This document shows positions 2,366-43,145 of a stretch of DNA of 64,000 bases, one piece after another. How positions within the stretch are numbered: position 1 is the stretch's first letter; each line of letters opens with the position of its first letter. Below the pieces are notes generated by a model that saw nothing but the letters and a program-made list of their open reading frames with translations, made no database searches and had not been told where the DNA came from. The DNA is from Pseudoalteromonas tunicata (GTDB lineage: Bacteria; Pseudomonadota; Gammaproteobacteria; Enterobacterales; Alteromonadaceae). The translations under genes were made by a program, and so were the position numbers. The stretch covers positions 1,466,001 through 1,530,000 of the forward strand of contig NZ_CP011032.1 in the NCBI RefSeq assembly GCF_002310815.1, read 5' to 3'.

Positions 2366-3388
2366 TTATTCTAAAGCGCCAGTGCTATCACGGATCACAA
2401 GTTCAGGTGTAAACATTTTGCGTAACTCTTTTGGCTTGTTACGTGTACCTCGTGTTTTGGTAAATAATAACTGAGCTGCGTGCTGTGCAATCGTCTCAAT
2501 TGATTGATGTGCAGTCGTTAGTTTTGGCCAAGTTTGGCGAGAGAAGGGGTTATCTTCAAACCCAGCAATCGAAAGTTGCTGAGGGATTTTTATTGTCATG
2601 AGCCGTGCCGCGAAAAGGGCACCAGCCGCAATTTCATCATTACAGGCAAAAATAGCGGTGACTGACTTATTCTCGCTTAATAAGGCTTTGGCATTATTAA
2701 CACCAGACTCAAATGAGTAGTGACCATCGATGATTAAGGCATCATCAATGTTGATGTTATTGCTCGATAATGCCTCTTTATAGCCAGCAAGGCGTTCAAG
2801 AGTTGATTTATGTTCTTTATCACCAGATAAAAAAGCTATATTGCGATGGCCAAGTCCAATTAAATGCTCGGTGATAGCAAACGAAGCATCTCGGTCATTA
2901 ACAAAAATACAGTCAGTTTGGGTCTCTTCGGTTTGGCGACCAGATAAAACTCGAACGTAGTTCACCTCGAGTTTATCTAGCGCTTCAATAACATCTTCAC
3001 GTTCAGACAGTGGAGGCGTTAAAATCAGCCCAGAAATACGAGCACGAGTCACCATGGTAGTTAACTCTTCGAGCATATTTTCATCTTTACCAGAGCAAGG
3101 GTGAATAAGTAATTCATATCCTTCATCTTTACAGCGCGATAAAATACCTTTTTGCATGTCAAGGACATAATAGGCGTTTGGATTATCGTACACTAAGCCA
3201 ACAGTAAAAGACTTTGTACCAGCCAAGCTACGTGCAGCAAGGTTAGGTTGGTATTTTAATTCGTTAACCGCTTTCATTACCTCATCATAGGTTTTTTTGC
3301 GTACTGATGGTTCGTTGTTCATCACACGTGAAACGGTTTTCATTGATACGCCAGCTAGTTTTGCGACGTCATTAATCGTTACTTTCAT
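2366..3388 (-). CDS. LacI-family transcriptional regulator
   Basis: A 340-residue protein with the standard LacI layout. The N-terminal helix-turn-helix (TINDVAKLAGVSMKTVSRVM) and the hinge region (LAARSLAG) are intact and are followed by a periplasmic-binding-protein-like effector domain of about 280 residues. It is divergent from pgi, and the shared 348-bp spacer contains two palindromes of LacI type. Identical or near-identical palindromes recur before both halogenase-locus TonB receptors, inside the DUF6445 gene and before the S8 protease. The inference is that it controls a regulon joining hexose-phosphate metabolism to uptake of an external substrate, probably a sugar. The effector cannot be read from the sequence. 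Class is certain; the link to the sites rests on position and site type. Confidence 0.92.
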   Translation of the reverse strand: MKVTINDVAKLAGVSMKTVSRVMNNEPSVRKKTYDEVMKAVNELKYQPNLAARSLAGTKSFTVGLVYDNPNAYYVLDMQKGILSRCKDEGYELLIHPCSGKDENMLEELTTMVTRARISGLILTPPLSEREDVIEALDKLEVNYVRVLSGRQTEETQTDCIFVNDRDASFAITEHLIGLGHRNIAFLSGDKEHKSTLERLAGYKEALSSNNINIDDALIIDGHYSFESGVNNAKALLSENKSVTAIFACNDEIAAGALFAARLMTIKIPQQLSIAGFEDNPFSRQTWPKLTTAHQSIETIAQHAAQLLFTKTRGTRNKPKELRKMFTPELVIRDSTGALE

Positions 3389-3576
3389 ATTGTTATTCTA
3401 TATTCGAATACAGCGTAAAATATCAGACCGGATCATTACAAAAACAGACCCTGTCGCGACCCCTTTAACTCATGTGAGCTTGATGTTTAACTTTTTTATT
3501 TACATCAATCGAATTGATTTAACCTAGTCTATCTAACTTCTGACTAAGATAGCAGAAAATATTTCATAATTAGCGA

Positions 3577-3590
3577 TGACAACGGTGTCA
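3577..3590. promoter_or_regulatory. Putative LacI-type operator 1 (pgi/LacI spacer)
   Basis: TGACAACGGTGTCA, an inverted repeat with perfect TGACA/TGTCA outer halves. It sits 19 bases before operator 2, in the divergent spacer between the LacI gene and pgi. Confidence 0.75.
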
Positions 3591-3609
3591 AATATTTCTT
3601 TTGGAGTGT

Positions 3610-3623
3610 TGACAGCGTTGTCA
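3610..3623. promoter_or_regulatory. Putative LacI-type operator 2 (pgi/LacI spacer)
   Basis: TGACAGCGTTGTCA, identical to the sites before the receptors at 9090 and 16524. It lies 113 bases before the pgi start. The centre-to-centre distance to operator 1 is 33 bases, close to three helical turns, which would suit cooperative binding. Confidence 0.82.
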
Positions 3624-3736
3624 TTTTTACTTATTGTTAACTTCTATCAAATAAAGTCATTCTAATAAATAGGATTGACTTGTAGTTAAGTAGTTAATTT
3701 TACCTTGGGGTAGAGCTAACTTTTTGAGGAATTAAT

Positions 3737-5383
3737 ATGAGTAACCGTACTGCATTGCCTAGTTGGCAATCATTGCAATTGTTAGCAAAAAACATTCAAG
3801 GTGTTCATCTAAAACAGCTTTTTTCAGATGATGCTGAACGTTTTGAGCGCTACTCAATTGCAATCGATGGATTACTTTTTGATTACTCTAAAAATTTAAT
3901 TACACCTGAAATTCACGAGCAATTATTAGCATTAGCCAAAGACGTTAATTTAATCGAATGGCGCGAAAAAATGTTTCGTGGCGAAAGAATTAATTTTACC
4001 GAAAATCGTTCAGTATTACACACGGCATTGCGCCAGCGCGCAGACAACCCTTTTATGCTTGATGGCGAGAATATTAATCAAGCGGTACATACTGAATTAA
4101 AAAAAATGAGCGTATTTGTTGAACAAGTACGTTCAGGTGCATGGTTAGGTTATGATAATCAAGCGATCACTGATGTGGTGAGTATCGGAGTTGGTGGTTC
4201 AAACCTTGGCCCACAAATGGCCACGGAAGCGCTCAAGCCTTATGCAGATGACAGATTAAACGTGCATTATGTCTCTAATGCTGATGGTGTTCAAATTCAT
4301 CAAGTATTAGCAAGGTTAAATCCGGCAACAACATTGTTTGTGGTTTCTTCAAAAACCTTTACTACATCAGAAACAATGACCAATGCACGCACCGCATTAG
4401 CGTGGCTAAATGCTGCGACAGATGTTGAAGGCGCAGTAGCAAAACATTTTGTAGCTGTTAGCTCAAACCTCACTAAAACCGCTGAGTTTGGCATTGATAG
4501 TGCCAATGTTTTTGCTATGTGGGATTGGGTAGGAGGACGTTTTTCGCTTTGGTCTGCCATCGGTTTACCGATTGCACTGTATTTGGGTTTTGATACGTTT
4601 ACTGAATTGTTAGCTGGGGCTGCTGATGCGGATGAGCACTTTTTTAATACCGAGCTAAGCCAAAATATCCCTGTGATTATGGCGCTTTTGAGTGTATGGA
4701 ATACCTCGTTTTTAGGCGCAAAAGCGCAAGCAATTTTACCTTATGATCAAACTATGCATATGTTGCCTGCGTATTTACAACAAGCAGAAATGGAAAGTAA
4801 TGGAAAATCAGTTACGTTTGCAGGTGACTCGGTTGATTATACGACCGTGCCATTAATTTGGGGGATGACAGGTATAAACGGGCAGCATGCTTTTTACCAG
4901 TATCTGCATCAAGGTACCACAATTGTACCTGCTGATTTTATTGGCTCAATTGAGCCAAGCGTTGCGGTTGGTCATCATCATCAAGTATTAATGTCGAATT
5001 TCTTTGCTCAGACCCAAGCATTAATGAATGGTGTAGATGCAAATGAAGTGCGTGCAGCGCTCGGTAAAAAAGGGCTTAGCGATACAGAAATAGAACAGTT
5101 AGTAGCACATAAAGTTCATCAAGGTAATCGACCAACAACGTCTATTATCTTAGATAAAATTGATGCCAGAGGCCTTGGTCGTTTAATCGCATTTTATGAA
5201 CATAAAATATTTTGCCAAGGTATCTTGCTTGAAATTTGTTCATTTGATCAATGGGGCGTTGAGCTTGGCAAGGGGCTTGCGAGTAATATTGAAGCCGAGC
5301 TTGCGACTAATAATATTGTTTTAGGTCATGATAGCTCGACTAACGGCCTAGTTAATTATTTTAAACAAAAACGTACAATCTAG
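3737..5383 (+). CDS. pgi: Glucose-6-phosphate isomerase
   Basis: Interconverts glucose-6-phosphate and fructose-6-phosphate in the cytoplasm. The 548-residue length matches bacterial Pgi. The SIS-type sugar-phosphate regions (GVGGSNLGPQMATEAL; SSKTFTTSETMTN) are present, as are the signature GRFSLWSAIGLPIAL and the C-terminal GQHAFYQYLHQGT and GVELGKGLASNIEAEL segments. The start is an ATG with GAGG about eight bases upstream. Two LacI-type operators precede it. zwf and pgl follow in the same direction after a 505-bp spacer, so regulation by the divergent LacI protein is likely. No entry-level sugar kinase or Entner-Doudoroff genes (edd, eda) are in the window. Confidence 0.97.
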   Translation: MSNRTALPSWQSLQLLAKNIQGVHLKQLFSDDAERFERYSIAIDGLLFDYSKNLITPEIHEQLLALAKDVNLIEWREKMFRGERINFTENRSVLHTALRQRADNPFMLDGENINQAVHTELKKMSVFVEQVRSGAWLGYDNQAITDVVSIGVGGSNLGPQMATEALKPYADDRLNVHYVSNADGVQIHQVLARLNPATTLFVVSSKTFTTSETMTNARTALAWLNAATDVEGAVAKHFVAVSSNLTKTAEFGIDSANVFAMWDWVGGRFSLWSAIGLPIALYLGFDTFTELLAGAADADEHFFNTELSQNIPVIMALLSVWNTSFLGAKAQAILPYDQTMHMLPAYLQQAEMESNGKSVTFAGDSVDYTTVPLIWGMTGINGQHAFYQYLHQGTTIVPADFIGSIEPSVAVGHHHQVLMSNFFAQTQALMNGVDANEVRAALGKKGLSDTEIEQLVAHKVHQGNRPTTSIILDKIDARGLGRLIAFYEHKIFCQGILLEICSFDQWGVELGKGLASNIEAELATNNIVLGHDSSTNGLVNYFKQKRTI

Positions 5384-5888: not shown

Positions 5889-7358
5889 ATGCTAAACCCA
5901 TTTGATATTATTATTTTTGGTGGTGGTGGTGATTTATCACTACGTAAACTCCTACCGGCATGGTATCGCGCTTATCAAGAAGGTAATTTGCCTGCTGGTA
6001 GTCGTATTATGCCAACAGTAAGAGAATTAGCTGATCGAGCCGAATTTATTGAAAAAGTAGACAACGCCTTGCAAGCCCATTTAAGCACTGGCGAATATAA
6101 CAAAAAAGATTGGGCTGTATTTGCAGAGTTTATTCATCCGATAGCGATTAATGTTACAGAGATTGATGAAAACTGGACTTTATTAAAAGAACGTCTTGAA
6201 GCCGAAGCCTCAGATCGTTCGCGGGTGTTTTATTTATCTTTACCGCCAGCTGTTTACGGTCGTTGTTGTGAGTTGTTGTCGCAGATGGAGCTTATTACTG
6301 AAACTTCGCGTGTCGTGGTGGAAAAGCCAATCGGTTACTGCGGTGCTTCTGCTGAAGAAATTAACTCTCAAGTGGCTCTGTATTTTAAAGAAGAGCAAAT
6401 TTTCCGTATTGACCATTATTTAGGTAAAGAGACAGTACAAAATTTAATGGCATTGCGTTTTTCGAACGTATTGTTTGAGAATTTATGGGATGCTAAAACG
6501 ATTGATAATATTCAAATTAGTATTTCAGAAACCGTTGGTTTAGAAACTCGTGCTGGTTTTTATGACAAAGCAGGTGCACTGCGAGACATGGTGCAAAACC
6601 ACTTATTACAACTTTTATGTTTAGTTGCGATGGAATCGCCGCATAAATTGAATGCGAATAGTATTCGAGCTGAAAAATTAAAAGTACTTGAAGCGCTACG
6701 CCCTATAGTAGGTAAAGAAGTTAAAGAGAACATTGTGCGTGGGCAATATGTACCTGGAACAATGAATGGTAAAGTGGTACCTGGTTATTTAGAAGAATTA
6801 GGTGATAACTCCACCACAGAAACCTTTGTTGCTATTCGCGCTCACATTGATAACTGGCGTTGGGCAGGTGTGCCATTTTATTTAAGAACGGGCAAGCGTT
6901 TGAAAAAGCGTTGCGCTGAGATTGTGGTTGAATATAAATCGGTTTCACATAATGTTTATGAGCAAAATGTCGGTCCAATTCAACCTAATCGTCTGGTGAT
7001 CCAAATTCAACCAGAAGAAAGTATTCAACTAACTTTGATGTCAAAACGTCTTGATAGTCTAGAAATGCAACTTGAACCTGTAACGTTAAACATCGAATTA
7101 GCGGAAGATTATAATAATAACTATCAAGGTGATGCTTATAAGCGTTTAATGCTTGATGCAGCAGCCAATAATCCTGCGTTATTTATTCATCGTGACGAAG
7201 TTCGTCAAGCGTGGAAGTGGATTGATCCTATTGTTGAACAATGGCAAAAATCAGGTGTTCCAGCGCTTTATCGAGCTGGTTCTTGGGGCCCAATTGATGC
7301 TGATGAGTTATTAGCTGAGCGAAATCATACTTGGTACAACGCAGGAGATAATGTTTAA
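5889..7358 (+). CDS. zwf: Glucose-6-phosphate 1-dehydrogenase
   Basis: Oxidises glucose-6-phosphate to 6-phosphogluconolactone with NADP, the entry to the oxidative pentose phosphate and Entner-Doudoroff routes. The nucleotide-binding loop GGGGDLSLRKLLPAW is at the N-terminus and the active-site motif RIDHYLGKE is near residue 180. The ATG at 5889 is chosen over an upstream GTG at 5844: it has AAAAGAGAA before it and gives 489 residues, the usual family length. The last eight bases overlap the start of pgl, so the two are translationally coupled. Confidence 0.97.
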   Translation: MLNPFDIIIFGGGGDLSLRKLLPAWYRAYQEGNLPAGSRIMPTVRELADRAEFIEKVDNALQAHLSTGEYNKKDWAVFAEFIHPIAINVTEIDENWTLLKERLEAEASDRSRVFYLSLPPAVYGRCCELLSQMELITETSRVVVEKPIGYCGASAEEINSQVALYFKEEQIFRIDHYLGKETVQNLMALRFSNVLFENLWDAKTIDNIQISISETVGLETRAGFYDKAGALRDMVQNHLLQLLCLVAMESPHKLNANSIRAEKLKVLEALRPIVGKEVKENIVRGQYVPGTMNGKVVPGYLEELGDNSTTETFVAIRAHIDNWRWAGVPFYLRTGKRLKKRCAEIVVEYKSVSHNVYEQNVGPIQPNRLVIQIQPEESIQLTLMSKRLDSLEMQLEPVTLNIELAEDYNNNYQGDAYKRLMLDAAANNPALFIHRDEVRQAWKWIDPIVEQWQKSGVPALYRAGSWGPIDADELLAERNHTWYNAGDNV

Positions 7359-8067
7359 GATGGCGATTGTTGAGAAGTTTTTTGATTCCAAAGAAGCGCT
7401 TAATGCAGAATTATCGGCCTCATTAGAAAAATCGTTGGTGGCAGGTATTGAAGCTGATGGTCGCGCAACATTATTAGTATCTGGTGGTTCATCACCAGCA
7501 CCGGCATACAAACATTTATCTGGTTTAGCATTGCCTTGGCATGATATTGATGTGGCTATGGTTGATGAACGATGGGTTGATGCGACTCATGAGAAAAGTA
7601 ATGAAGTATTTATTAAAGAGACTTTATTACAAGGTTATGCCAAAGAAGCGAATTTCATTACGATGAAAAATAGTGCTTTGTCAGCTGTGCAGGGAACAGC
7701 GCAGTGCGAAGCTGAATATCAAAAGTTAAAGCAGCCATTTGATGTAACTATTTTAGGTATGGGGCCAGATGGCCATACTGCGTCACTTTTTCCACATGCT
7801 GATGGTTTAGCGCATGGTTTAACTACCAAGGAATTAGTGTGTGCCATAAATGCAATGCAAAGTGAAGTAACAGGTGATATTACCGAGCGTATGACTTTGA
7901 GTTTAAATGGTATTTTAAATTCAAAAGTGATTAAACTGTTGATTAGTGGTCAAGAAAAATTAGATGTGTACATGAAGGCAAAAGAAAAAGCTGATATCGA
8001 CGCAACACCAGTTAGTGCGGTATTACATCAAGATAACGTATTAGTTGAGGTATATTGGGCACCTTAG
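7351..8067 (+). CDS. pgl: 6-phosphogluconolactonase
   Basis: Hydrolyses 6-phosphogluconolactone to 6-phosphogluconate. It has the SugarP isomerase-like Pgl fold: LLVSGGSSPAPAYKHL near the N-terminus, VDERWVD in the middle, and the hallmark LGMGPDGHTASLFPH. The ATG at 7351 overlaps the zwf stop. A second ATG at 7360 (giving MAIVEKF) is equally possible, since AGGAG at 7343-7347 lies 3 bases from the first and 12 from the second. In many relatives edd and eda come next; here a long spacer and the receptor/halogenase locus follow instead. Confidence 0.95.
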   Translation: MFKMAIVEKFFDSKEALNAELSASLEKSLVAGIEADGRATLLVSGGSSPAPAYKHLSGLALPWHDIDVAMVDERWVDATHEKSNEVFIKETLLQGYAKEANFITMKNSALSAVQGTAQCEAEYQKLKQPFDVTILGMGPDGHTASLFPHADGLAHGLTTKELVCAINAMQSEVTGDITERMTLSLNGILNSKVIKLLISGQEKLDVYMKAKEKADIDATPVSAVLHQDNVLVEVYWAP

Positions 8068-8237
8068 GGTGTAAAAAGCATTTTAAATCAAACAGCTTTT
8101 TAACTTGATATCACAATAAAGGTATCACTTTAGTTGTTTGTACTAAATGTTAAAAATAACCCTCGAATGAGTCGGGGGTTAGCATCAATAATGGGCATCT
8201 TAAGGTGCCTTTATCCAAAATTTAAAAATTATAATTT

Positions 8238-8266
8238 GTGAGTTTATAATGCAAACTCACTTTTTT
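8238..8266 (+). terminator. Rho-independent terminator after zwf-pgl
   Basis: Stem GTGAGTTT/AAACTCAC with a 7-base loop, then six T. It lies 171 bases past the pgl stop. A weaker hairpin, GGCATC/GGTGCC followed by TTT, is just upstream near 8193-8211. Confidence 0.8.
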
Positions 8267-8488
8267 ATTGTACCCAACAATCAGTTTTTAAGGTCTATAG
8301 CTGTATCTTAGAAAATCACTTAAATTTCAGTTAATTCTATTAATACAAGCCAAACTCAAAATTTAACTCGCCTTAGCCAGCAATAGCATACTGAGTGAGT
8401 TGGATAATCAAAAGAACAGTGCCAGCATTTTAAAATACAAATAGTTGAATTTATCTTTAGGATTAATCTGTTTAATACTAGATTTTCA

Positions 8489-8554
8489 GCAAAGTAATAG
8501 TTAGAATACATAAATGACAGCGCTGTCATTTATGTATTCTAACTATTACTTTGC
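8489..8554. repeat. Perfect 66-bp palindrome centred on a LacI-type operator
   Basis: Every base from 8489 pairs with its partner to 8554: 33-bp arms, no loop, no mismatch. The centre (8515-8528) is TGACAGCGCTGTCA, itself a full match to the operator consensus. It lies between the pgl terminator and the first receptor. On DNA it could extrude as a cruciform or bind a dimeric repressor plus flanking proteins; as RNA it would be a very stable hairpin. Confidence 0.9.
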
Positions 8555-8639
8555 AAATAACTCCTGCCCGAATTATTTGTTGCTGTGATAGTGTATTGAT
8601 TTTCCCCCTTTGAATCTAATTACTGCGCTATTTATTTCT

Positions 8640-8682
8640 TTTTTAAGTCGAATAAGCTTTTAAGGCTTATTTGACTTAAAAA
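8640..8682. repeat. 18-bp-arm inverted repeat in the pgl-receptor spacer
   Basis: TTTTTAAGTCGAATAAGC pairs with GCTTATTTGACTTAAAAA across a 7-base loop, with one G-T position. It may be a bidirectional terminator or a second structural element next to the 66-bp palindrome. The rest of the 8267-9018 spacer shows no gene. Confidence 0.65.
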
Positions 8683-9018
8683 TCAATATCAGGTCGAGCT
8701 GGTCACTCCAGTTTAACTTATTCAAAGTGTAAAGTTCTATCCTGTTGTTTTAAATCAATATTTTATTTTTATTTAAGCTTGTTCATATTTTATTACATTT
8801 TAGTGACTATGTTTCTCATCGCTTTCGGCTTTACATCATGATGCATCGATAGGTAAGATAAAGTTTAGCAAAGGAGCGAAATGCTCTTTGCGGGCTTTTT
8901 TGTGCTTATTTTGTTAATTCAAAGTATTTTTTCGTTTAAATTAAGTGGAAAAATTGTACAAAGTACACAAAAAAAATGTAGCGAAGTTGTAATTTTGCGT
9001 GTATGGTTTGTTACTAGA

Positions 9019-9032
9019 TGACAGCGTTGTCA
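9019..9032. promoter_or_regulatory. Putative LacI-type operator before TonB receptor 1
   Basis: TGACAGCGTTGTCA, extended to GATGACAGCGTTGTCATC. It lies 58 bases before the start codon. Site, spacing and flanking bases are shared with the receptor at 16524. Confidence 0.82.
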
Positions 9033-9089
9033 TCATCACTGGGCAGAAGTGATTTAAAAAACCAACAAAATTGATTCAAGGGGAATCCT

Positions 9090-11900: not shown

Positions 11901-13421
11901 ATGGATATAAAAAAAGTCGCTATTTTAGGTGGGGGCACTGCGGGGTGGTTAACAGCAAATCACTTAGGTAAAGCTCTGATCGGGCAAGGTATATCAATTA
12001 CCGTAATTGAGTCTCCTGATATACCAACCATAGGTGTTGGTGAGGGGACTGTGCCTATGATGAGAGAAACACTCAAATACTTTGGGATCAGCGAAAGTCA
12101 ATTTATCAAAGAATGTGATGCGACATTTAAGCAATCTATCAAGTTTGTAAATTGGTTAGACAAAACGGCACACGGTGAAGGTAATTTTTATCATCACTTA
12201 TTTGATTTTCCTTTTCCAAATAATCGAGATTTAACTCCTTTTTGGCTACGCACACAACACAAGTCATTTGCCCAAACGGTCTCATTTCAAGCAAATGTAT
12301 GCGAGGCTAAAAAAGCCCCAAAAAAGATTTCAACACCTGAATATGTCGGCGAAACGACTTATGCATATCATCTTAATGCGAAAAAATTTGCCGAATTATT
12401 ACAAAACCATGCAGTAAATAAGTTTTCTGTTGCACATCAAGTGAGTACTGTGATTGATGCGACTGTTAATAATACTGACATTGAGTTGATAGTAACGGAC
12501 ACTCATGGTGAGCAAGTTTTTGATTTTTATGTAGATTGCTCGGGATTTAATTGTTACTTGTTGGGTAAAAAATTAAATATACCATTTGTGGATATGAGCC
12601 ATAAGCTCCCCATAGATAAAGCTATTACGGCGCAAATACCTACTGAGGATGATGCTGAAATCCCTCCATATACAATTGCTACTGCACATGAAGCAGGTTG
12701 GATATGGGATATAGCGCTAAAAAATAGGCGTGGAACCGGTTTTGTTTATTCGTCAAACTATCTTTCAGATGAAGAGGCAAAACAAAAGTTTGAGCGTTAT
12801 CTCGGTCAGTCTTTAGAGGGCATAGTTTCTCGAGTAATTCCAATGAAAATTGGCTATCGAGAACAGTTTTGGCAAGGCAACTGCGTTGCAATTGGTTTGT
12901 CCCAAGGTTTTGTTGAACCATTAGAAGCAACTGCCATTTTAGTAACCGATTTTTGTGCTCGACATTTAGCAGAGCGTTTTCCTCGCTCAAAATCAGAGCT
13001 ACCAGCTTGTCAGAGCCGGTTCAACCGTAATGTAAAATATGCATGGGATCGCGTTATTGATTTTATACAATTGCATTATTATTTATCAGATAGACAGGAT
13101 TCTGCTTTTTGGTTGGATTGGAAAAACGTCGATCGCTTATCTGATGAACTAAAACAAAAGTTAGCGATTTGGCAAAATAATCCGCCTTTATCGACCGACT
13201 TCTTTTCAAAGTTTGAAGTGTTTGATGTAGAAAATTATTTATATGTTTTGTATGGAATGCATTATTTAACTAAGCCATCATATATAGACGCTAAGTCATT
13301 CGAGCAAGATCAAATATTGGCTCAACAAGTAGAAGATCATAGTCAAAAATTAATAGCGAGCCTTCCTTCACATCGCGAATTAATAGATAAACTTGCTAGA
13401 TTTGACTTCAGTAAGCTATAA
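11901..13421 (+). CDS. Flavin-dependent tryptophan-halogenase-like protein 1
   Basis: A 506-residue member of the FADH2-dependent halogenase family. The FAD-binding GGGTAGW is at residues 11-16 and VGVGEGTVP-like sequence at about 45-52. The lysine that guides hypohalous acid in PrnA/RebH is kept (FKQSIKFVNW, Lys77), and so is the catalytic glutamate region FVEPLEATAI (Glu342). The WxWxIP signature reads WIWDIA (267-272), with alanine for proline. Characterised relatives chlorinate or brominate tryptophan or indoles; whether this one does is untested. It lies just after receptor 1's terminator, converges on the next halogenase-like gene, and needs an external flavin reductase not seen in the window. 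Confidence 0.88.
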   Translation: MDIKKVAILGGGTAGWLTANHLGKALIGQGISITVIESPDIPTIGVGEGTVPMMRETLKYFGISESQFIKECDATFKQSIKFVNWLDKTAHGEGNFYHHLFDFPFPNNRDLTPFWLRTQHKSFAQTVSFQANVCEAKKAPKKISTPEYVGETTYAYHLNAKKFAELLQNHAVNKFSVAHQVSTVIDATVNNTDIELIVTDTHGEQVFDFYVDCSGFNCYLLGKKLNIPFVDMSHKLPIDKAITAQIPTEDDAEIPPYTIATAHEAGWIWDIALKNRRGTGFVYSSNYLSDEEAKQKFERYLGQSLEGIVSRVIPMKIGYREQFWQGNCVAIGLSQGFVEPLEATAILVTDFCARHLAERFPRSKSELPACQSRFNRNVKYAWDRVIDFIQLHYYLSDRQDSAFWLDWKNVDRLSDELKQKLAIWQNNPPLSTDFFSKFEVFDVENYLYVLYGMHYLTKPSYIDAKSFEQDQILAQQVEDHSQKLIASLPSHRELIDKLARFDFSKL

Positions 13422-13447
13422 AAAAAAGCCCCTAAGGGCTTTTTTTA
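13421..13447. terminator. Bidirectional terminator between convergent halogenase-like genes
   Basis: AGCCC/GGGCT stem with A-run on the left and T-run on the right. It overlaps the stop of the upstream gene and touches the stop of the downstream one. Confidence 0.85.
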
Positions 13448-14977
13448 TAGATAATTTTGAATTAAATCGCGATTATTTTTTAATTGCTTTTTCGCGTTAG
13501 AGCCTTTGATTTGAATAGATTCAAATGCTTTATCGATTAATGTATCGGGTAATGGCGCTGATTCCACGTAATCAGGTAAAAACTCAAGCCCATAGAGAAT
13601 ATATTGCCAGCTGGCCAAGGTAAATAAGTCATATTTATATGGTAAGTCACCATCGGTAATACCATAATATTTCCATGCCTCAAGCCGAGCTTTTAAACTA
13701 GCAGGTAGTGTCTTACTACTGGTATGTTCTTGCCAAAAAGCCGTATCTTTTCGTTTAGAGAGACAATAATGAAGCTTGATGAAATCAATGATATTTTTCC
13801 AGCGCGATACAAAAATTTCATTGTATTGCTGTTGTCTTATGTCCATCGCAGCTCTGTGTTGTGGGAAGCGTGCAGCAAGAGAGCGAACTCCAGCCTCAAC
13901 CATCGCAATAGCCGTCGCTTCAAGAGGTTCAACAAATCCACTGGAAAAACCAATCGCACAGCAGTTTTTGTACCATGACTTTTCACGGTAACCCACATCA
14001 AAATGAATATGCCTTAGCGAAATATCAGTGTCTGCATCAATATTATGATAAGCCTTAAGAACGGCTTCTGCCCGTTCAGGAGTAGTATGTTTTGATGAAT
14101 AGACATAACCAGTCCCTCGTCTTGATTGAAGCGATATATCCCAAATCCAACCGGCTTCTTGAGCCGTTGAAATAGTATGGGTTGCTATTGGTGAGTCATC
14201 TTTTTCATACGATACTTGCAGCGTTACCGCTGAATCGACACTTAAATATTGCGACTGACTAACGAATGGTACTGTTAGTGCTTTGCCTAACAGTAAAGAT
14301 CTAAAACCCGTACAATCAACAAAAAAATCAGCTAAAAATGTTTTACCTTCATTACTTGTTATCGACGCGATATAACCATCGTTATCTATATTCACGTCTT
14401 CAATATCAGCAAAGATATGCTCAATATTGAGCTTTTCGGTACCATGCTTTTGTAGAACTTTTCCGAGTTTGGCGGCATCCAGATGATATGCATATTTAGC
14501 AAGCCATGAAAATTCGGGTGTTTCTGTAGTTTTGGGCGCTAAATTATGATCACATAATTGGGCCTGAACACAGGTAGCATGACTAAAATCATGTGACATT
14601 GTTCCTGCCTTTTTTCTTTTTACCCAATAGGCACTGAGGTCTATGCCTTTTGGCATTTCAGGTGGTTCAAAAGGATGATAATAGCCATGAGTGCGCTCTT
14701 GAGGGTCATGGAGCCAATTTTTAAACAGTGCACCTTGTTTAAAGCTCGCATCACAAGAGGCAAGGAAATCTTTTTCAGATAAACCTATTTCATACAAGGT
14801 ATTCACTATAGTCGGAAATGTACCTTCTCCGACACCAATCGTTGGAATGTTGGCTGATTCAATTAAAGTAACTTTGATATTACGGCCTGTTTTTTTAAAG
14901 CTACTTGCTAGATAAGTTGCACTTAACCATCCAGAGGTGCCACCACCGACTACAATTACATTTCTCAAATCTGTCAT
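13445..14977 (-). CDS. Flavin-dependent tryptophan-halogenase-like protein 2
   Basis: A 510-residue halogenase-family flavoprotein. The start is set at ATG 14977 (MTDLRNVIVVGGGTSGW) because AAGG lies seven bases before it; in-frame sequence runs further upstream to 15022 but would overlap the neighbour. GGGTSGW binds FAD, SFKQGALFKNW carries the conserved lysine, and GFVEPLEATAIAM the glutamate. The WxWxIP motif reads WIWDIS. It lies 16 bases after the DUF6445 gene on the same strand, forming a two-gene operon that opposes the surrounding + strand genes. Substrate and halide are unknown. Confidence 0.88.
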   Translation of the reverse strand: MTDLRNVIVVGGGTSGWLSATYLASSFKKTGRNIKVTLIESANIPTIGVGEGTFPTIVNTLYEIGLSEKDFLASCDASFKQGALFKNWLHDPQERTHGYYHPFEPPEMPKGIDLSAYWVKRKKAGTMSHDFSHATCVQAQLCDHNLAPKTTETPEFSWLAKYAYHLDAAKLGKVLQKHGTEKLNIEHIFADIEDVNIDNDGYIASITSNEGKTFLADFFVDCTGFRSLLLGKALTVPFVSQSQYLSVDSAVTLQVSYEKDDSPIATHTISTAQEAGWIWDISLQSRRGTGYVYSSKHTTPERAEAVLKAYHNIDADTDISLRHIHFDVGYREKSWYKNCCAIGFSSGFVEPLEATAIAMVEAGVRSLAARFPQHRAAMDIRQQQYNEIFVSRWKNIIDFIKLHYCLSKRKDTAFWQEHTSSKTLPASLKARLEAWKYYGITDGDLPYKYDLFTLASWQYILYGLEFLPDYVESAPLPDTLIDKAFESIQIKGSNAKKQLKNNRDLIQNYL

Positions 14978-14993
14978 GGTAAACCTTGTCTTT

Positions 14994-15692
14994 TTATTTT
15001 TTGATACAAAAGAAAGAAGCAACGGTTAATCTACCCAAACTTAAATCAGAGGTTTGGTTAATTTCACCTTTTAAATCAGCACAGTGTAGTATATTTCCAG
15101 AATAAATAATGATGCGATTAAACTTAGGCTTCACGGTAAAAACTTGTTCGAATAAGCGTGTGCTTCCTTGTAAGTAACCAGAGTGCTCATTTTCAAACTC
15201 TTTTAATGATTTAATCATATCGATGACAGCGTTGTCACCATTAATTTCTGTTTCACCGGTAGATTTGTATTTATAAAAAGAAGTCCCACCATGTTGTTCG
15301 CTGCATAAATAATGAACAGTCGCAAATTCGTTATTCTCGTAACAATCTACATGGGGTAGCTTTTGATAAATAGAGAGCTCATTTTCTTTTAAGGTGGTTA
15401 TTGAAATTTCACTTCTATAAACATCTACATCTAAAAATTTATCACTATAACCTTGTGTAGTGAGTGTATGCAGTAATTCACTAAGAGCACGTTTATAAGG
15501 TGCAGGCATTTTATCTCTTTTTCCGGGATAAAATGTGCCATCTGCACCTGGAGGGTTAAAATAAGCTGTGTTTTTGGCGAAGTTAACAAGAACTTCTGGG
15601 TTCTTTAAGAAGTCGTCAATGATAAATAGTATGTGATTTGATGAAGGGATCGTAATTTTTTTAACCGTGAAGTCATTATTTAAATAAAACAT
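14994..15692 (-). CDS. DUF6445-type protein, putative Fe(II)/2-oxoglutarate enzyme
   Basis: A 232-residue soluble protein without signal peptide. It resembles the DUF6445 group often found beside TonB receptors and tryptophan-halogenase-like genes. An HxD...H facial triad is plausible: HVD at 114-116 and His203 in the segment IIIYSGNILHCADL. A 2-oxoglutarate-binding arginine may be among Arg193 or Arg221. It is the first gene of an operon with the halogenase-like protein at 13445. A full match to the LacI-type operator is embedded in its codons 152-157. The enzymatic role is inferred from motif spacing only; the reaction is unknown. Confidence 0.7.
   Translation of the reverse strand: MFYLNNDFTVKKITIPSSNHILFIIDDFLKNPEVLVNFAKNTAYFNPPGADGTFYPGKRDKMPAPYKRALSELLHTLTTQGYSDKFLDVDVYRSEISITTLKENELSIYQKLPHVDCYENNEFATVHYLCSEQHGGTSFYKYKSTGETEINGDNAVIDMIKSLKEFENEHSGYLQGSTRLFEQVFTVKPKFNRIIIYSGNILHCADLKGEINQTSDLSLGRLTVASFFCIKK
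15224..15237. promoter_or_regulatory. Intragenic LacI-type operator inside the DUF6445 gene
   Basis: TGACAGCGTTGTCA on the + strand, identical to the sites before pgi and both receptors. It encodes residues around GDNAVI on the minus strand and lies about 455 bases inside the gene. A chance exact match in 64 kb is very unlikely. Confidence 0.65.
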
Positions 15693-16454: not shown

Positions 16455-16468
16455 TGACAGCGTTGTCA
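16455..16468. promoter_or_regulatory. Putative LacI-type operator before TonB receptor 2
   Basis: TGACAGCGTTGTCA, 56 bases before the start codon. The whole leader from the operator to the start closely matches the leader at 9019-9090. Confidence 0.82.
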
Positions 16469-16523
16469 TGATCGCTGGGTAGAAGTGATATAAAACCAAC
16501 AATATAGATTCAAGGGGAATCCT

Positions 16524-19073
16524 GTGTTAGCTAACAATTTTAAAAAAAGCATATTAGCAATAAACATCGGTCTAGTATTGACCGCAGGTATGACGGGCAC
16601 TGTTTATGCTGCTGATGAAGTTAAAGTTCAAGAAGAAGTTGAAGTTATTGAAGTGCGTGGTATACGCCGCTCGTTAGAAGCTGCATTAAATACGAAACGT
16701 TTCGCTAACGCGGTAGTTGATTCAATTTCAGCTGAAGACATTGGTAAAATGCCAGATAAAAATATCGCTGAATCGCTTCAACGCATTCCTGGTGTGTCAA
16801 TTACTCGTAACTTTGCGGGAGAGGGCGGTTCAGTTTCAATCCGTGGTACGAATCCCGAGTTAACGGCCATTTCTTTAAATGGGAACTATGTTGCTTCGAC
16901 AGGTTGGTTTTCTCAACAAGCAATGTCGCGCTCTTTTGATATGGATTTAATGCCAGCTGAAATGGTTGCAGGGGTAGATGTTTATAAATCACCAACAGCT
17001 TCATTAGATGAAGGTGGTGTGGGCGGTAGCGTGGTAATGCGTACTCGCAAACCACTAGAGCTAGACTCAATGACCATCTTCGGTTCATTAGAAATGCAAG
17101 ATAACAGCATTGCTGATGACAATGGGTTTGGCGGTACGGGTCTTGTTAGCTGGAAAAATGAAGAAAGCAATTTTGGTATTTTAGGCTCACTTTCTACCCT
17201 TGAAACAGTTGGCCGGGCACATAAAGCTGAAAACTACATGGACGATGGTTGGGCGGGTGCCGGTATTGCTGAGTTTAACCAAACACGTAAGCGTGATGCG
17301 GTAAACTTTGTTGTGCAATATGCGCCTTCTGATGCGCTAGAAATGTCATTTAACTATTTTGGTGTTGATTTAGATGCGGGTAACTCAAATCAAAACTACT
17401 TAATTATCGCAGGTACTGATGTAGCAGGATTTAATTCAACGGTTTCAGGTGCAACTGAATTTGGTCCGTTAGGTTTTGCACTCAATGGTACACGCACAGG
17501 CGGTCCATTTGATGATCAAAATACCCGTAATGCAGAGGTTGATACCAAAGTGTATTCGTACGAAGCTAATTATACAGCAGAATCGTACACCGCTAAGTTT
17601 ATCTTAGGTAAAACCGAAGCATCAGGTGGTGATGGTGGTAACTATAACATTGGTTGGACGTCAACTAATCCTAATCAAACCATTGAGTTTGATATGACAC
17701 GTAAAAACGATATGTTGTTAAAACCAAGCAATACCGATGCTGGCAATCATGCTGAATACGTAATGAATACGCCGGCAGTGACAGAAGGTGTTCGTTCAGA
17801 TGAAGAAACTTTTGCGCAATTAGATCTTGATTTTGCTGTTGAAATTGGCTCAATTACCAATATCAAAACAGGTTTAAAAGTACGTGATCATGAGTTTTTA
17901 AGCTACTCAAATAGATGGAGTTTTGCACCAGGAATTAACCTAGGTGCCAATGGCCAACCACTTACTAAAGCAGATTTTGCTGATGGTCATTTTGATCACT
18001 CAGGAGTTGGTTTAGTTGCAGGCTCACCCACTAATATTGCTCGAACTGATGGCGCGGCACTGCGTAAACATATTAACAGCTTTAAAAATGGCTCAACCTT
18101 AAATAAAGATGGTTGGGGTAAAGTATCAGAAGATATTACAGCAGCATATGTGCAAAGTGATTATTCTGGCGATGGTTTCCGAGGTAACGTAGGGTTACGT
18201 TATGTTCAAACTGATACCACATCAACATACTACGATTTTGTTACCCTAGATTTTAAAACAACTGAAAAGCGTAATTATGCAGATTGGTTACCAAGCTTTA
18301 ATTTAGCCTTAGACCTTGATGATACTTTAATTTTACGTATGTCAGCGGCAAAAGTTATGAGCCGTCCCAACTATACCTTTATGAATCCAGCATCAAGCTA
18401 TAACGAAACAACGCAAACCTATACCCGTGGTTCGGTTGATCTTGATCCGTATCGTGCAAACCAAGCTGATATTGGTATTGAGTGGTACTTCAATGAGTCG
18501 TCATTGATTTCTGCGTCACTCTTTAGCAAAGATATTAAGTCATTCATTATCCAAGGCGGGAATGTGTCACAAATCCAGGTTGGAGGTCAAACGCGCTTTG
18601 TTAGTGCTCCAGCACAAGGTCTAGGCGGTCAAATTGAAGGCCTTGAACTGCAATACCAACAAGCATTTGGTGAATTTGGTGTACTTGCTAACTTAACGTA
18701 TGCCGAAGGTTATGGTTTACAACAATCAAATGGTCAAATCGTTAAAGCAGGTTTACCGGGTTTATCTAAGCTAACCATGAACTTAACTGGTTACTACGAA
18801 ACAGATTTGTACTCAGTACGTGTAGCTTATAATCACCGTGATGAATACCTAGCTGAAAGCACAGGGATTGGCGGTACAACACTTTGGGATGCGCACGGTT
18901 ATGTTGATTTATCAGCAACGTGGCATATCAATGAAAACCTAGATTTAAGCCTAGAAATGACTAACTTGCTTGAAGAAACAACAACGCAACGTTTAGATGG
19001 TGCGTATGACGCAATGCGTTTAGCAGCAGAAAATGGTCGTAATAGTTATTTGAAATTGTCTTACCGTTTCTAA
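16524..19073 (+). CDS. TonB-dependent receptor 2 (Xanthomonas/Caulobacter-type)
   Basis: An 849-residue outer-membrane receptor and paralogue of receptor 1. Its signal peptide is nearly the same and ends VYAA. The TonB-box-like VEVIEVRG and GIRRSLEAALNTKR ... AEDIGKMPDKNIAESLQRIPGV follow. The barrel differs strongly from receptor 1, and it ends in a typical LSYRF. The start is GTG with AAGGGG upstream, identical to receptor 1. A LacI-type operator lies 56 bases before it. Two halogenase-like genes and a SapC-family gene follow in the same direction. The barrel divergence suggests a different or differently sized ligand under common control. Confidence 0.93.
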   Translation: MLANNFKKSILAINIGLVLTAGMTGTVYAADEVKVQEEVEVIEVRGIRRSLEAALNTKRFANAVVDSISAEDIGKMPDKNIAESLQRIPGVSITRNFAGEGGSVSIRGTNPELTAISLNGNYVASTGWFSQQAMSRSFDMDLMPAEMVAGVDVYKSPTASLDEGGVGGSVVMRTRKPLELDSMTIFGSLEMQDNSIADDNGFGGTGLVSWKNEESNFGILGSLSTLETVGRAHKAENYMDDGWAGAGIAEFNQTRKRDAVNFVVQYAPSDALEMSFNYFGVDLDAGNSNQNYLIIAGTDVAGFNSTVSGATEFGPLGFALNGTRTGGPFDDQNTRNAEVDTKVYSYEANYTAESYTAKFILGKTEASGGDGGNYNIGWTSTNPNQTIEFDMTRKNDMLLKPSNTDAGNHAEYVMNTPAVTEGVRSDEETFAQLDLDFAVEIGSITNIKTGLKVRDHEFLSYSNRWSFAPGINLGANGQPLTKADFADGHFDHSGVGLVAGSPTNIARTDGAALRKHINSFKNGSTLNKDGWGKVSEDITAAYVQSDYSGDGFRGNVGLRYVQTDTTSTYYDFVTLDFKTTEKRNYADWLPSFNLALDLDDTLILRMSAAKVMSRPNYTFMNPASSYNETTQTYTRGSVDLDPYRANQADIGIEWYFNESSLISASLFSKDIKSFIIQGGNVSQIQVGGQTRFVSAPAQGLGGQIEGLELQYQQAFGEFGVLANLTYAEGYGLQQSNGQIVKAGLPGLSKLTMNLTGYYETDLYSVRVAYNHRDEYLAESTGIGGTTLWDAHGYVDLSATWHINENLDLSLEMTNLLEETTTQRLDGAYDAMRLAAENGRNSYLKLSYRF

Positions 19074-40879: not shown

Positions 40880-40898
40880 TCTTAGTGTTTGTCCCAAT

Positions 40899-40932
40899 AA
40901 AAAAGCCCTAGCTAACTGCTAGGGCTTTTTTT
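40899..40932. terminator. Bidirectional terminator between PilZ gene and S8 protease
   Basis: GCCCTAGC/GCTAGGGC stem with A-run and T-run on either side. Confidence 0.9.
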
Positions 40933-40948
40933 GTTTCTTCAGTGTAAC

Positions 40949-43042
40949 TTACTGACAGCTGCCATTAGCAGTCCATACTTTATATTGGCCTGAGTTATCG
41001 GCAGGATTATCACCTTTGGTCCACCAATTAGCGGTGTATTTGGTATTTTGATATGCGACCTGATCGCCTGCGACATACACTGAGCTTGTTGACCACGCAA
41101 CTACACCAGAGCAACCTTGCTGGCTTTCACTCACTTGAACTTGTTGGGTTTTTGTTGCTTCAAGTCCTTCGGCATCTTTTACCGTAAGCGATACCAAATA
41201 GCTGCCAGCTTGAGTATAAGTATGGCTTGGTGACGCTTGCATTGACGTTGCGCCATCACCAAATGACCAAGCGTAGCTTGCAACAGCTTTATCGTCGCTG
41301 GAGGTGTCAGTAAAGCTGACCGAAAGTTGGTTGGTATTAAAACTAAAGTTTGCGACAGGTGCTTTATTTGTATTATCGCCATCACCAGAGCAGTTGCCTA
41401 AGCGCTTCCAAACGTTACTGTATACTTCTGGGTTTGCGCCGGTTGACCACCAGGTTGCTTCATATATCTTGTTATTGTGGGCAACTTTATCACCAATTTT
41501 GTATGAGGTTGCATTGTTCCATGAAGCTAAACCATCACAACCTGTATTAGTATCTGTATTGATAGTAACAACCTGAGTGAAGAAAGCAGATTGGCCTGCG
41601 GTATCTTTTACCGTTAAACGAACCGTATATTGGCCATCAGCATTGTAGGTAAAGCTTGGATTTTGCGCTGTAGATGTGGAGTTATTACTATCACCAAATT
41701 GCCAAGCATAACTGGTTATGCCTTTATCATCTGTTGATTGATTAGTGAAGCTGACTTGTTTACCGGTTACATTAGCACTAAAGCGTGCAATTGGGGCCGC
41801 ATCAGTGCCGCCACCTGTACCACAATCGTTGGCTAAATAATCAGCAGCGGCTTTGGCTTGAATTAAACCAAAACCATAAGAAGTATCACGACCTGCAGCG
41901 CCTTTATCTTTTGCTGTTTTATTAATTGCGTCACGAACTTGTTGGTTACTACAGCTAAGGTTGTTGCTCCACACAAGTGCTGCAACACCTGAAACATGCG
42001 GTGTAGCCATTGATGTACCACTAATACTTTTATAGCCATTATTGTTCCAAGTAGAATTAACCCCAACACCTGGCGCTGCGATTTCAACTTGATTGTTAAA
42101 TTGTGAGAATGATGCTTTGTTTTCTGAGCTATCAACGGCCGCAACAGAGACCACAGAATTATAAGAAGCAGGATAACTTAAAGAGCTGTTGCCATCATTA
42201 CCCGCAGCGGCAATATGGAGCATACCTTGCGCATAGCTATTATCAAACGCTTGGCGCTCAGCAGTAGACGAGCCTGAGCCCCCTAAACTCATACTAGTAA
42301 TGTTTGCACCCGCAGCCTGACACTGTGAAATGGCTTTGATCAAATCTGAACCGTATGCCCAATTGCCTTGATCATTAAATACTTTAACTATGTGTAAACC
42401 AAGCTGTCCTGATGGATTAACCCCAACCACACCTTGGTTATTACCACCAATTGCAGCGATGGTACCGGCTACGTGAGTACCATGACCATTACCATCGTTA
42501 TACCAATTTCCGGTATCGTTATTACCATAACCGTCATCGCCTGTGATGCCTGTACTTGGTAAATCAGGGTGATTAAGCGTATAGCCGGTATCCATAATAC
42601 ATACTTTACGATTACCGCTCATGGCATCAGATAGCAAAGGTGCTTGCACCATATTGATACCATAAGGTGTACTTTCTGCCAGTAAGTAGCGCTTAGGATC
42701 GACCTCAATGCTTGCCACATCAGGATTAGTTTCGAGCATCGCTTTTTGCTCGGCACTCAAAATTAATGCAACGGCGTTTATGGAAGGGAGTTCTTGTATA
42801 ACATTGGCTTGCACTGATGCCGCAATTGTCTGCACCATATTTTGTTTAAGCGTAGTAAGCTGGTGTGATGATGCGCTTTGATTGCTTTCAAATACAGGGT
42901 TGAGTTTGTATTGCACTATAAAACGCTCAGTCTCAGGCGTCGCTAATTGTTGCTCTGTTGCGATGGTATTAAAACCAACCCCGCCCAATAACGCCATCAA
43001 AATGGCATTTTTACGAAAGTTAACCGTGTTGTACTTGCTCAT
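40949..43042 (-). CDS. Secreted subtilisin-like protease with alternating PKD and CBM5 domains
   Basis: A 697-residue exported S8 peptidase. The ATG at 43042 is set by GGAG nine bases upstream. Signal peptide to about 29; inhibitor I9 propeptide 35-120; catalytic Asp151 (IMDTG), His187 (NGHGTHVAG) and Ser344 (GTSMATPHVSG). Then come PKD (about 417-500), a chitin-binding CBM5/12-type module (about 505-557, ATWWSTG), a second PKD (about 562-640) and a second CBM5/12 (about 647-697, ANWWTKGDNP). By family it degrades protein in polysaccharide-protein matrices such as chitin-rich material. A one-mismatch LacI-type operator lies 90 bases before the start. Confidence 0.93.
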   Translation of the reverse strand: MSKYNTVNFRKNAILMALLGGVGFNTIATEQQLATPETERFIVQYKLNPVFESNQSASSHQLTTLKQNMVQTIAASVQANVIQELPSINAVALILSAEQKAMLETNPDVASIEVDPKRYLLAESTPYGINMVQAPLLSDAMSGNRKVCIMDTGYTLNHPDLPSTGITGDDGYGNNDTGNWYNDGNGHGTHVAGTIAAIGGNNQGVVGVNPSGQLGLHIVKVFNDQGNWAYGSDLIKAISQCQAAGANITSMSLGGSGSSTAERQAFDNSYAQGMLHIAAAGNDGNSSLSYPASYNSVVSVAAVDSSENKASFSQFNNQVEIAAPGVGVNSTWNNNGYKSISGTSMATPHVSGVAALVWSNNLSCSNQQVRDAINKTAKDKGAAGRDTSYGFGLIQAKAAADYLANDCGTGGGTDAAPIARFSANVTGKQVSFTNQSTDDKGITSYAWQFGDSNNSTSTAQNPSFTYNADGQYTVRLTVKDTAGQSAFFTQVVTINTDTNTGCDGLASWNNATSYKIGDKVAHNNKIYEATWWSTGANPEVYSNVWKRLGNCSGDGDNTNKAPVANFSFNTNQLSVSFTDTSSDDKAVASYAWSFGDGATSMQASPSHTYTQAGSYLVSLTVKDAEGLEATKTQQVQVSESQQGCSGVVAWSTSSVYVAGDQVAYQNTKYTANWWTKGDNPADNSGQYKVWTANGSCQ

Positions 43043-43131
43043 TTGTTGCAACTCCAATGTTAATTAATTATGGTTTTTTAGATTTAGTGAATAACGTTAC
43101 AAAATGTTCACATACCTAAAAAAGCAACAAA

Positions 43132-43145
43132 TGATAACGCTGTCA
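43132..43145. promoter_or_regulatory. Near-match LacI-type operator before the S8 protease
   Basis: TGATAACGCTGTCA, one base from the TGACARCGYTGTCA consensus, 90 bases before the protease start on the minus strand. The rest of the 43146-43552 spacer shows nothing else I can support. Confidence 0.5.

What the first reader, a model, noticed from the sequence alone, without database searches (positions are those of the whole stretch)
2366..43145. One operator family links pgi, two TonB receptors, a halogenase-like cluster and a secreted protease
Seen: TGACARCGYTGTCA palindromes at 3610, 8515, 9019, 15224 and 16455, a close variant at 3577, and a one-mismatch form at 43132. Four are in promoter position. 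Known: LacI-family regulators bind even palindromes with a central CG, and the only LacI-family gene here sits beside two of the sites. Inferred: a regulon joining uptake, hexose-phosphate flow and the halogenase-like proteins.
Basis: partly seen in the sequence, partly recalled or inferred. Interest (0 to 1): 0.85.

Follow-up and report, generated by a model that had tools for sequence, protein, structure and literature searches.

The report
GlcNAc regulon with receptor-pairing RNA
The repeated DNA motif is most likely the switch site of a known repressor for chitin-sugar use, and one copy sits at a promoter that probably makes an undescribed RNA able to pair with, and perhaps block, the messenger of the sugar receptor encoded just downstream.

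Summary
The sites are real: 7 hits, 0.74 expected. The owner is very likely NagR, the LacI-family repressor of N-acetylglucosamine (GlcNAc) and chitin use. Outside the window the only exact sites precede nagK-nagA-nagX and nagB; one-mismatch sites precede nagP and a GH19 chitinase. Relatives of the LacI gene often sit in nag clusters (nagK nearby in 46 of 80 loci). The 'secreted protease' carries chitin-binding modules. That regulon is a known kind; site 15224 lies inside a gene.

The unexpected part is site 8515. Across the genus it marks a sigma-70-like promoter 300-504 bp before the receptor's own operator and aimed at the receptor (72 of 77 loci score at least 10/12, the window only 8/12). 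The RNA there carries a CUGCC-type loop complementary to a conserved receptor-leader hairpin, and a stretch complementary to its ribosome-binding site. The loop is in 58 of 58 loci and 18 of 19 held-out ones. A second RNA with this loop lies elsewhere in the genome. I infer a NagR-controlled base-pairing brake on the receptor; cis or trans is open; nothing was measured.

The parts
2366..3388 (-). NagR orthologue (LacI family, 340 aa)
   Evidence: PF00356 and PF13377; homologue at E <= 1e-100 in 92 of 108 same-genus genomes, own included; in 80 named loci nagK-like is nearby in 46 and GH20 in 46
3577..3590 (.). NagR operator, 1 mismatch, nagR-pgi divergent region
3610..3623 (.). NagR operator, exact, nagR-pgi divergent region; an exact site lies there in 28 of 29 genus loci examined (the other, L053, is cut off before pgi)
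3737..5383 (+). pgi, glucose-6-phosphate isomerase
   Evidence: NCBIfam above cut-off
5892..7358 (+). zwf, glucose-6-phosphate dehydrogenase (ORF open from 5844)
   Evidence: TIGR00871 above cut-off
7351..8067 (+). pgl, 6-phosphogluconolactonase
   Evidence: TIGR01198 above cut-off
8238..8270 (+). intrinsic terminator-like hairpin with T run, after pgl
8479..8507 (+). distal promoter TAGATT-17-TAGAAT (8 of 12 here; at least 10 of 12 in 72 of 77 genus loci); not listed by the general promoter scan
8489..8554 (.). 66-bp perfect palindrome centred on the operator
8515..8528 (.). distal NagR operator, exact, 7 nt after the -10 box
8515..8640 (+). putative NagR-controlled regulatory RNA (ends not known)
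   Evidence: RNA fold z -4.4 for 8520-8640; genus comparison
8554..8579 (+). RNA hairpin 1; predicted loop CTGCCC (8564-8569), complementary to GGGCAG of the receptor leader
8598..8616 (+). RNA hairpin 2; predicted loop TCCCCCTTT, complementary to the receptor SD region (longest Watson-Crick run 6)
9019..9032 (.). proximal NagR operator, exact, 71 nt before the receptor start codon
9035..9053 (+). receptor leader hairpin ATCACT-GGGCAGA-AGTGAT; its core TCACTGGGCAGAAGTGA is found exactly, once, in 77 of 108 genus genomes, own included
9073..9087 (+). SD hairpin GATTC-AAGGG-GAATC before start codon GTG 9090
   Evidence: this leader end occurs only before the two receptors in this genome
9090..11738 (+). 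TonB-dependent receptor 1
   Evidence: TIGR01782 above cut-off
11901..13421 (+). halogenase-like flavoprotein (PF04820)
13445..15022 (-). halogenase-like flavoprotein (PF04820)
14994..15692 (-). DUF6445 protein (PF20043), holding an intragenic operator match at 15224-15237
16455..16468 (.). NagR operator, exact, before receptor 2
16471..16489 (+). receptor 2 leader hairpin ATCGCT-GGGTAGA-AGTGAT, candidate second target
16507..16521 (+). receptor 2 SD hairpin, identical to that of receptor 1
16524..19073 (+). TonB-dependent receptor 2 (39% identical to receptor 1)
19182..20744 (+). halogenase-like flavoprotein (Pfam not run on this one)
   Evidence: same weak NCBIfam relatives as the two PF04820 proteins
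20754..22298 (+). halogenase-like flavoprotein (Pfam not run on this one)
   Evidence: same weak NCBIfam relatives as the two PF04820 proteins
22406..23122 (+). SapC-family protein (PF07277)
40949..43057 (-). secreted S8 protease with PKD and two CBM5/12 chitin-binding stretches
43132..43145 (.). NagR operator, 1 mismatch, 75 bp before the protease ORF start

Best explanation
The palindromes are operators of NagR, which represses GlcNAc/chitin uptake and catabolism and links them to pgi-zwf-pgl. The copy at 8515 controls a separate promoter upstream of receptor 1. The RNA made there folds into hairpins: one presents CUGCC(C/A), which pairs with the GGGCAG loop of the receptor leader, and another stretch pairs with the receptor SD. 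When a GlcNAc metabolite releases NagR, receptor and RNA are made together and the RNA limits receptor translation (an incoherent feed-forward brake). Receptor 2, whose leader is nearly the same, is a likely second target, and a separate terminator-ended RNA at C1:2233220-2233362 is a likely second regulator. Shown by sequence comparison: operators, promoter, hairpins, conserved complementarity. Inferred: that the RNA is made, the direction of its effect, action in trans, the inducer.
For: NagR: the only exact sites outside the window precede nagK-nagA-nagX and nagB; one-mismatch sites precede nagP and GH19 chitinase; nagK-like near 46 and GH20 near 46 of 80 orthologues. RNA: promoter at least 10/12 in 72 of 77 loci, shuffles 1.5%. 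Watson-Crick complement of at least 7 nt to the leader loop in 52 of 58 and 11 of 19 held-out loci (shuffles 3-4%), to the SD in 49 of 58 and 16 of 19 (shuffles 7-8%); a control stretch of the same gap gives 0 of 58 for both. Loop predicted open in 55 of 58. Over 39 distinct sequences the hairpin arms pair with their own partner in 78% of five positions, against 60% with another species' partner, while the loop stays. The two complements stand in either order in different clades (by eye). Of 11 loci without the RNA, 7 also lack the GGGCAG loop. Second RNA: fold z -6.9; 7 of 12 terminator pairs change on both sides; in this genome it stands without the receptor gene that precedes it in six relatives.
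Against: No expression data. The window copy is among the weakest: promoter 8/12 and not picked up by the general scan, which finds no excess of promoters there (5 against 4.5); longest Watson-Crick complements 6 and 6; duplex energy not unusual (z -0.44, 67 of 200 shuffles as good). With G-U pairs allowed the SD complement does not stand out (at least 8 nt in 36 of 58, shuffles 46%, control stretch 29 of 58). Intrinsic terminators before receptor 1 are seen in only 12 of 77 loci, against 13 of 77 on the other strand, so a separate small RNA is not shown. Four loci keep the GGGCAG loop without a visible partner (L213-L215, L220), and their genomes are not among the hits for the second RNA; held-out G039 has lost the hairpin. 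In the second RNA the loop hairpin itself shows no two-sided changes, and the count of pair types is below shuffles. Species are related, so counts are not independent.
Confidence: 0.6

Rival explanations
1. Cis version: the distal promoter reads through into receptor 1, giving a long leader in which the upstream hairpin and anti-SD fold onto the downstream loop and SD. The long mRNA is then poorly translated, while the short mRNA from the proximal promoter is translated.
For: The promoter points at the receptor; no general intrinsic terminator in between (12 of 77); the element lies upstream of the same receptor in all 58 loci with a separate distal operator.
Against: A second RNA with the same loop lies about 760 kb away and has its own terminator. 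Receptor 2 has nearly the same leader, with no such element seen in the DNA read upstream of it (15000-16600). The stretch between the operators varies in length (300-504 bp).
Confidence: 0.2
2. Plain NagR regulon: 8515 is an auxiliary operator for looping with 9019, and the RNA complementarity has no function.
For: LacI-family proteins can loop DNA (recalled); in the window the spacing is 504 bp, 48 turns of 10.5.
Against: Spacings over the genus show no helical phase (30 distinct distances, Rayleigh p 0.54-0.99 for repeats 10.3-10.7). Looping does not explain the promoter, the hairpin with variable arms and fixed loop, or complementarity absent from the control stretch.
Confidence: 0.1
3. 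The leader hairpin and the RNA hairpin are separate binding sites of an RNA-binding protein such as CsrA, not partners of each other.
For: The SD hairpin holds GGGGA, a CsrA-like feature (recalled); Csr-type RNAs are reported in Alteromonas (PMC5864184, passages) and Pseudoalteromonas (PMC9927453, search listing only).
Against: The conserved features are complementary to each other (CUGCC against GGCAG), which a shared protein site would not need; the CUGUCC change in L152 keeps pairing through G-U.
Confidence: 0.05
4. The operators belong to another LacI-family protein and not to the adjacent gene.
For: Six further LacI-family hits in the genome.
Against: Those are 26-39% identical, and the nearest in sequence lies beside a glucokinase-like ORF (by eye). 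In the named loci exact motif copies usually lie just upstream of this orthologue.
Confidence: 0.05

Closest known systems
NagR regulon of Shewanella, other Gammaproteobacteria and Xanthomonas (PMC5343134, PMC2996990; passages read)
   Same: LacI-family regulator, nag catabolic and transport targets, TonB receptors, chitin genes
   Different: pgi-zwf-pgl divergent from nagR and an RNA at a NagR operator are not mentioned in the passages read; the published NagR site letters were not found in the library
ChvR sRNA and chvT receptor mRNA, Caulobacter (PMC6237742; abstract and section 21 read)
   Same: small RNA represses a TonB receptor through two pairing sites, stem-loop 2 at -70 to -59 and stem-loop 3 at -20 to -10
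   Different: ChvR is run by ChvI-ChvG; here promoter and target share the sugar repressor and lie side by side; no sequence test of kinship was made
MicX, Vibrio cholerae (PMC1976385; passages read)
   Same: sRNA overlapping the end of a transport gene, lowers an outer-membrane protein mRNA; predicted to pair with start codon and SD of a second target
   Different: no MicX match to the RNA regions in the stretches scanned (one sub-threshold match lies elsewhere)
CrfA-SisA, Caulobacter (PMC12559287; passages read)
   Same: nutrient-linked RNAs set TonB receptor levels
   Different: CrfA is a sponge for other sRNAs; here the complement is to the receptor leader
ChiX-chiP, enterobacteria (recalled; search listing only)
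   Same: sRNA blocking the SD of a chitin-sugar outer-membrane channel (recalled)
   Different: no ChiX match in the stretches scanned; the target is a TonB receptor and the RNA is under NagR

Membership tests
NagR (LacI-family GlcNAc repressor) | LacI-type DNA-binding and sugar-binding domains | tested here: met
   PF00356, PF13377
NagR (LacI-family GlcNAc repressor) | operators before nag catabolic and transport genes | tested here: met
   exact sites before nagK-nagA-nagX and nagB; one mismatch before nagP
NagR (LacI-family GlcNAc repressor) | orthologues lie in nag clusters | tested here: met
   nagK-like in 46 of 80 and GH20 in 46 of 80 named loci; not in the window's own neighbourhood
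NagR (LacI-family GlcNAc repressor) | released by a GlcNAc metabolite | not testable with these tools
   needs binding assay
base-pairing small RNA with two target sites (ChvR-like in action) | conserved complementarity to two leader sites including the SD | tested here: met
   held-out set; not met at 7 nt by the window copy itself (6 and 6)
base-pairing small RNA with two target sites (ChvR-like in action) | separate transcript with its own terminator | tested here: inconclusive
   12 of 77 loci show a terminator-like hairpin; the second RNA at C1:2233220 has one
base-pairing small RNA with two target sites (ChvR-like in action) | repression restored by compensatory changes | not testable with these tools
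   bench test
known Rfam RNA family | match at gathering score | tested here: not met
   only sub-threshold matches in window 8000-9300 and in the eight loci scanned
LacI-type DNA loop with auxiliary operator | helically phased spacing | tested here: not met
   Rayleigh p 0.54-0.99 over 30 distinct spacings

The most novel reading that the evidence does not exclude
Pseudoalteromonas ranks nutrients at the outer membrane by RNA. A GlcNAc-repressor-controlled RNA and an unrelated RNA lying in the 3' UTR of another TonB receptor both carry a CUGCC loop, and often an anti-SD stretch, aimed at the same receptor leader. Each receptor system can thereby brake the chitin-sugar receptor, and the 3'-UTR RNA can outlive the gene it came from.
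Probability: 0.3. Interest if true: 0.8.

Novelty: new variant of a known kind. Interest (0 to 1): 0.62.

Why it matters
TonB receptors are major gates for sugar uptake in marine bacteria, and the cases of RNA control of such receptors that I found here are mainly from Caulobacter. A repressor that switches on a receptor together with an RNA complementary to that receptor's own leader would be a compact way to cap outer-membrane load. The element is seen in 76 of the 108 genus genomes searched (58 plus 18), so it can be tested directly in chitin-degrading laboratory strains.

Tried and rejected
Entner-Doudoroff-only explanation for pgi in the regulon (no phosphofructokinase): rejected, a PFK family hit is present.

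DNA looping between 8515 and 9019: suggested by 504 bp = 48 turns in the window, not supported across the genus (the 19 held-out spacings in that script were typed).

Intragenic site 15224 as an active operator: at the same codons only in L179 among 29 relatives aligned; two others (L186, L187) have a one-mismatch site at +38 and three (L197, L201, L204) about 104 bp before the start codon. Left undecided.

Long-range duplex energies alone: 46 of 58 loci have at most 10 of 200 shuffles as good, but not the window. With G-U pairs allowed, a loop complement of at least 8 nt is in 53 of 58 (shuffles 29%, control stretch 16 of 58) and 14 of 19 held-out (shuffles 33%), while the SD complement does not stand out. 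The Watson-Crick count was made after that; both are reported.

Universal terminator after the RNA: not found.

Element outside the genus: among 58 named loci with a receptor hit (57 with an operator match upstream), GGGYAG in the leader was seen in L069, itself Pseudoalteromonas, which has the hairpin, and in L076, where it is not in that hairpin (by eye).

One locus (L166) was dropped from the leader counts because its contig starts too near the proximal operator.

Literature: the listings showed no paper on this RNA or on NagR in Pseudoalteromonas; only titles, abstract starts and the passages named were seen, and the library lacks most subscription papers.
Full report
Observation. In the whole genome (two contigs, 4.96 Mb) 26 places match with at most one mismatch, against 5 for the reversed pattern. 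Sixteen of the 26 lie outside ORFs of 80 aa or more, 10 inside. Among the seven exact sites only 15224 is inside a gene.

What the regulator is. The only exact sites outside the window precede nagK-nagA-nagX and nagB; all four genes exceed an NCBIfam cut-off. One-mismatch sites precede a NagP transporter, beside a GH20 hexosaminidase, and a GH19 chitinase. The 43132 site precedes an S8 protease with PKD domains and two CBM5/12 chitin-binding stretches. Other one-mismatch sites (before an amidase, a pilin-like gene and others) were not resolved; about five are expected by chance. In 80 named loci of the LacI orthologue, nagK-like is nearby in 46, GH20 in 46, receptor 1-like in 49, SapC in 41 and pgi in 5. 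This fits NagR, described as the LacI-family GlcNAc regulator (PMC5343134 and PMC2996990, passages read). The host is taken to be Pseudoalteromonas from the two named loci with the same gene order (L068, L069); the assembly itself is unnamed. The pgi link is regular in the genus: an exact operator lies between nagR and pgi in 28 of 29 loci examined, the other being cut off. GlcNAc yields fructose 6-phosphate, which Pgi turns into the substrate of Zwf (established pathway). My idea that this is forced by lack of phosphofructokinase failed.

The odd site. Site 8515 is 575 bp before receptor 1, after a terminator-like hairpin that follows pgl (8238-8270). Of 70 same-genus genomes with a receptor 1 hit at E <= 1e-200, own included (108 searched), 69 had readable upstream DNA. 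Of these, 58 have a distal operator 300-504 bp before the proximal one, two have operators 32 bp apart (L150, L220), and nine have one operator. The distal operator lies on or within 13 nt after a sigma-70-like -10 box: in these 58 plus 19 further loci, 72 of 77 score at least 10 of 12 and 76 of 77 at least 9, against 1.5% and 8% of shuffles. The one below 9 is the window (TAGATT-17-TAGAAT, 8 of 12).

The RNA. Downstream of the distal operator 58 of 58 loci hold a YTGYC(C/A) element, and the best RNA duplex with the receptor leader spans the GGGCA or GGCAGAAG stretch in 58 of 58. Energies beat shuffles in most loci (median z -3.3; 46 of 58 with at most 10 of 200 shuffles as good) but not in all; the window has z -0.44. 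Counting Watson-Crick pairs only, a complement of at least 7 nt to the leader loop is found in 52 of 58 (shuffles 3.6%) and to the SD stretch in 49 of 58 (shuffles 7.2%); a control stretch of the same gap gives 0 of 58 for both. In 38 less redundant sequences the figures are 25 and 32 (shuffles 3.1% and 8.0%). The window has 6 and 6. With G-U pairs allowed the loop match still stands out but the SD match does not. The hairpin arms differ between clades but pair with themselves (39 distinct sequences: 78% of five positions, against 60% with another species' arm, and 34-55% when slid), and the loop is predicted open in 55 of 58. In some clades the anti-SD comes first; in others, the window included, it follows in a second hairpin loop (by eye). 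That is what selection on pairing, rather than on one sequence block, would give.

The leader. TCACTGGGCAGAAGTGA occurs with no mismatch, exactly once, in 77 of 108 genus genomes (one mismatch allowed). It is followed by an SD hairpin, GATTC-AAGGG-GAATC. In this genome that SD block occurs only before the two receptors; receptor 2 (39% identical) has GGGTAG in the loop, still pairable through U-G.

Held-out test. Nineteen genomes with the leader were not in the first set, because they gave no receptor 1 hit at that cut-off. All 19 have a distal operator, 311-472 bp before the proximal one. Seventeen show the loop element within 100 nt; G028 has it further on, after a TTGAA-type repeat expansion; G039 has lost it. 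Strict complements: loop at least 7 nt in 11 of 19, SD at least 7 nt in 16 of 19. These loci were picked by the leader, so they test the partner only.

Co-loss. Of 11 first-set loci without the RNA, 7 also lack the GGGCAG loop (L209, L212, L230, L233, L234, L235, L150) and 4 keep it (L213, L214, L215, L220). The latter four are unexplained. Several of these look like one clade, so this is a handful of events.

A second RNA. Searching for the leader motif exposed an inverse copy at C1:2233231. The RNA there (C1:2233220-2233362) folds far better than shuffles (z -6.9): a closed multi-hairpin domain with CUUCUGCCCAGAAG, then an intrinsic terminator whose loop holds CCCCUUG. A model of it finds 12 of 108 genus genomes, ten strongly (stricter filters). 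Eight aligned sequences show 22 cells changed on both sides against 8.6 in shuffles, nearly all in the terminator helix (7 of 12 pairs); the loop hairpin has no two-sided change, and the count of pair types is below shuffles. In the six relatives examined it lies 11-28 nt after the stop codon of a TonB-receptor-like ORF, which in G036 (L302) reads only 447 aa. In this genome no such ORF is there, while the neighbouring gene and promoter-like DNA look like those of relatives (by eye); loss of the gene with retention of the RNA is the inference. The anti-SD loop is present in this genome and in G004, G082, G083 and G088, not in the other five seen.

Mechanism. Most likely: NagR release by a GlcNAc metabolite turns on both the receptor and an RNA that blocks receptor translation. 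Direction and inducer are inferred from the SD overlap and from known analogues. Cis or trans is open, since terminators before the receptor are not general (12 of 77 forward, 13 of 77 reverse, shuffles 2.7). The second RNA and the receptor 2 leader favour trans.

Comparison. The closest working analogue is ChvR of Caulobacter, which represses a TonB receptor through two pairing sites, at -70 to -59 and -20 to -10 (PMC6237742, section 21). The action is alike; kinship was not tested by alignment, and no Rfam family matched at threshold in the stretches scanned. NagR itself is known; the RNA was not found in the literature listings named in Tried and rejected.

Noticed in passing
window 8489-8554; L358 (G103): A perfect 66-bp palindrome centred on the operator. 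G103 has a perfect 48-bp palindrome at the same place with several changed positions, each matched in the other arm (compared by eye); its upkeep is unexplained (hairpin-templated repair or selection).
   Followed up: partly
L337 (G028): About 17 copies of a TTGAA-type pentamer repeat between the distal operator and the RNA hairpin.
   Followed up: no
L162, L171, L174, L226 upstream of the distal operator: A second operator-like palindrome (TGACACCGGTGTCT) lies by the -35 region in these loci.
   Followed up: no
window about 5488-5660 (pgi-zwf gap): Two imperfect copies of a stretch beginning ACCTTTGAACGGGTA and holding a TTTGTGAGAGG...TTGCAG block; function unknown (by eye).
   Followed up: no
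L019 (C1:664381): One-mismatch operator at the start of a pilin-like gene run; could be chance or a chitin-linked pilus.
   Followed up: no
L250-L253 (C2:274428, 297112, 303664, 310428): Four CACTGGGCAGCAGTG copies; L250 is coding DNA resembling an NRPS adenylation domain by eye, unrelated to the leader; the other three were not read.
   Followed up: partly
L148 4158-4254, minus strand (about window 11750-11846): Sub-threshold Rfam matches (Leu_leader 40.2 bits of 50; MicX 26.9 of 75) in the gap after receptor 1.
   Followed up: no
window 9035-9087 and 16471-16521: The leaders of receptors 1 and 2 are far more alike than the proteins (39% identity).
   Followed up: partly
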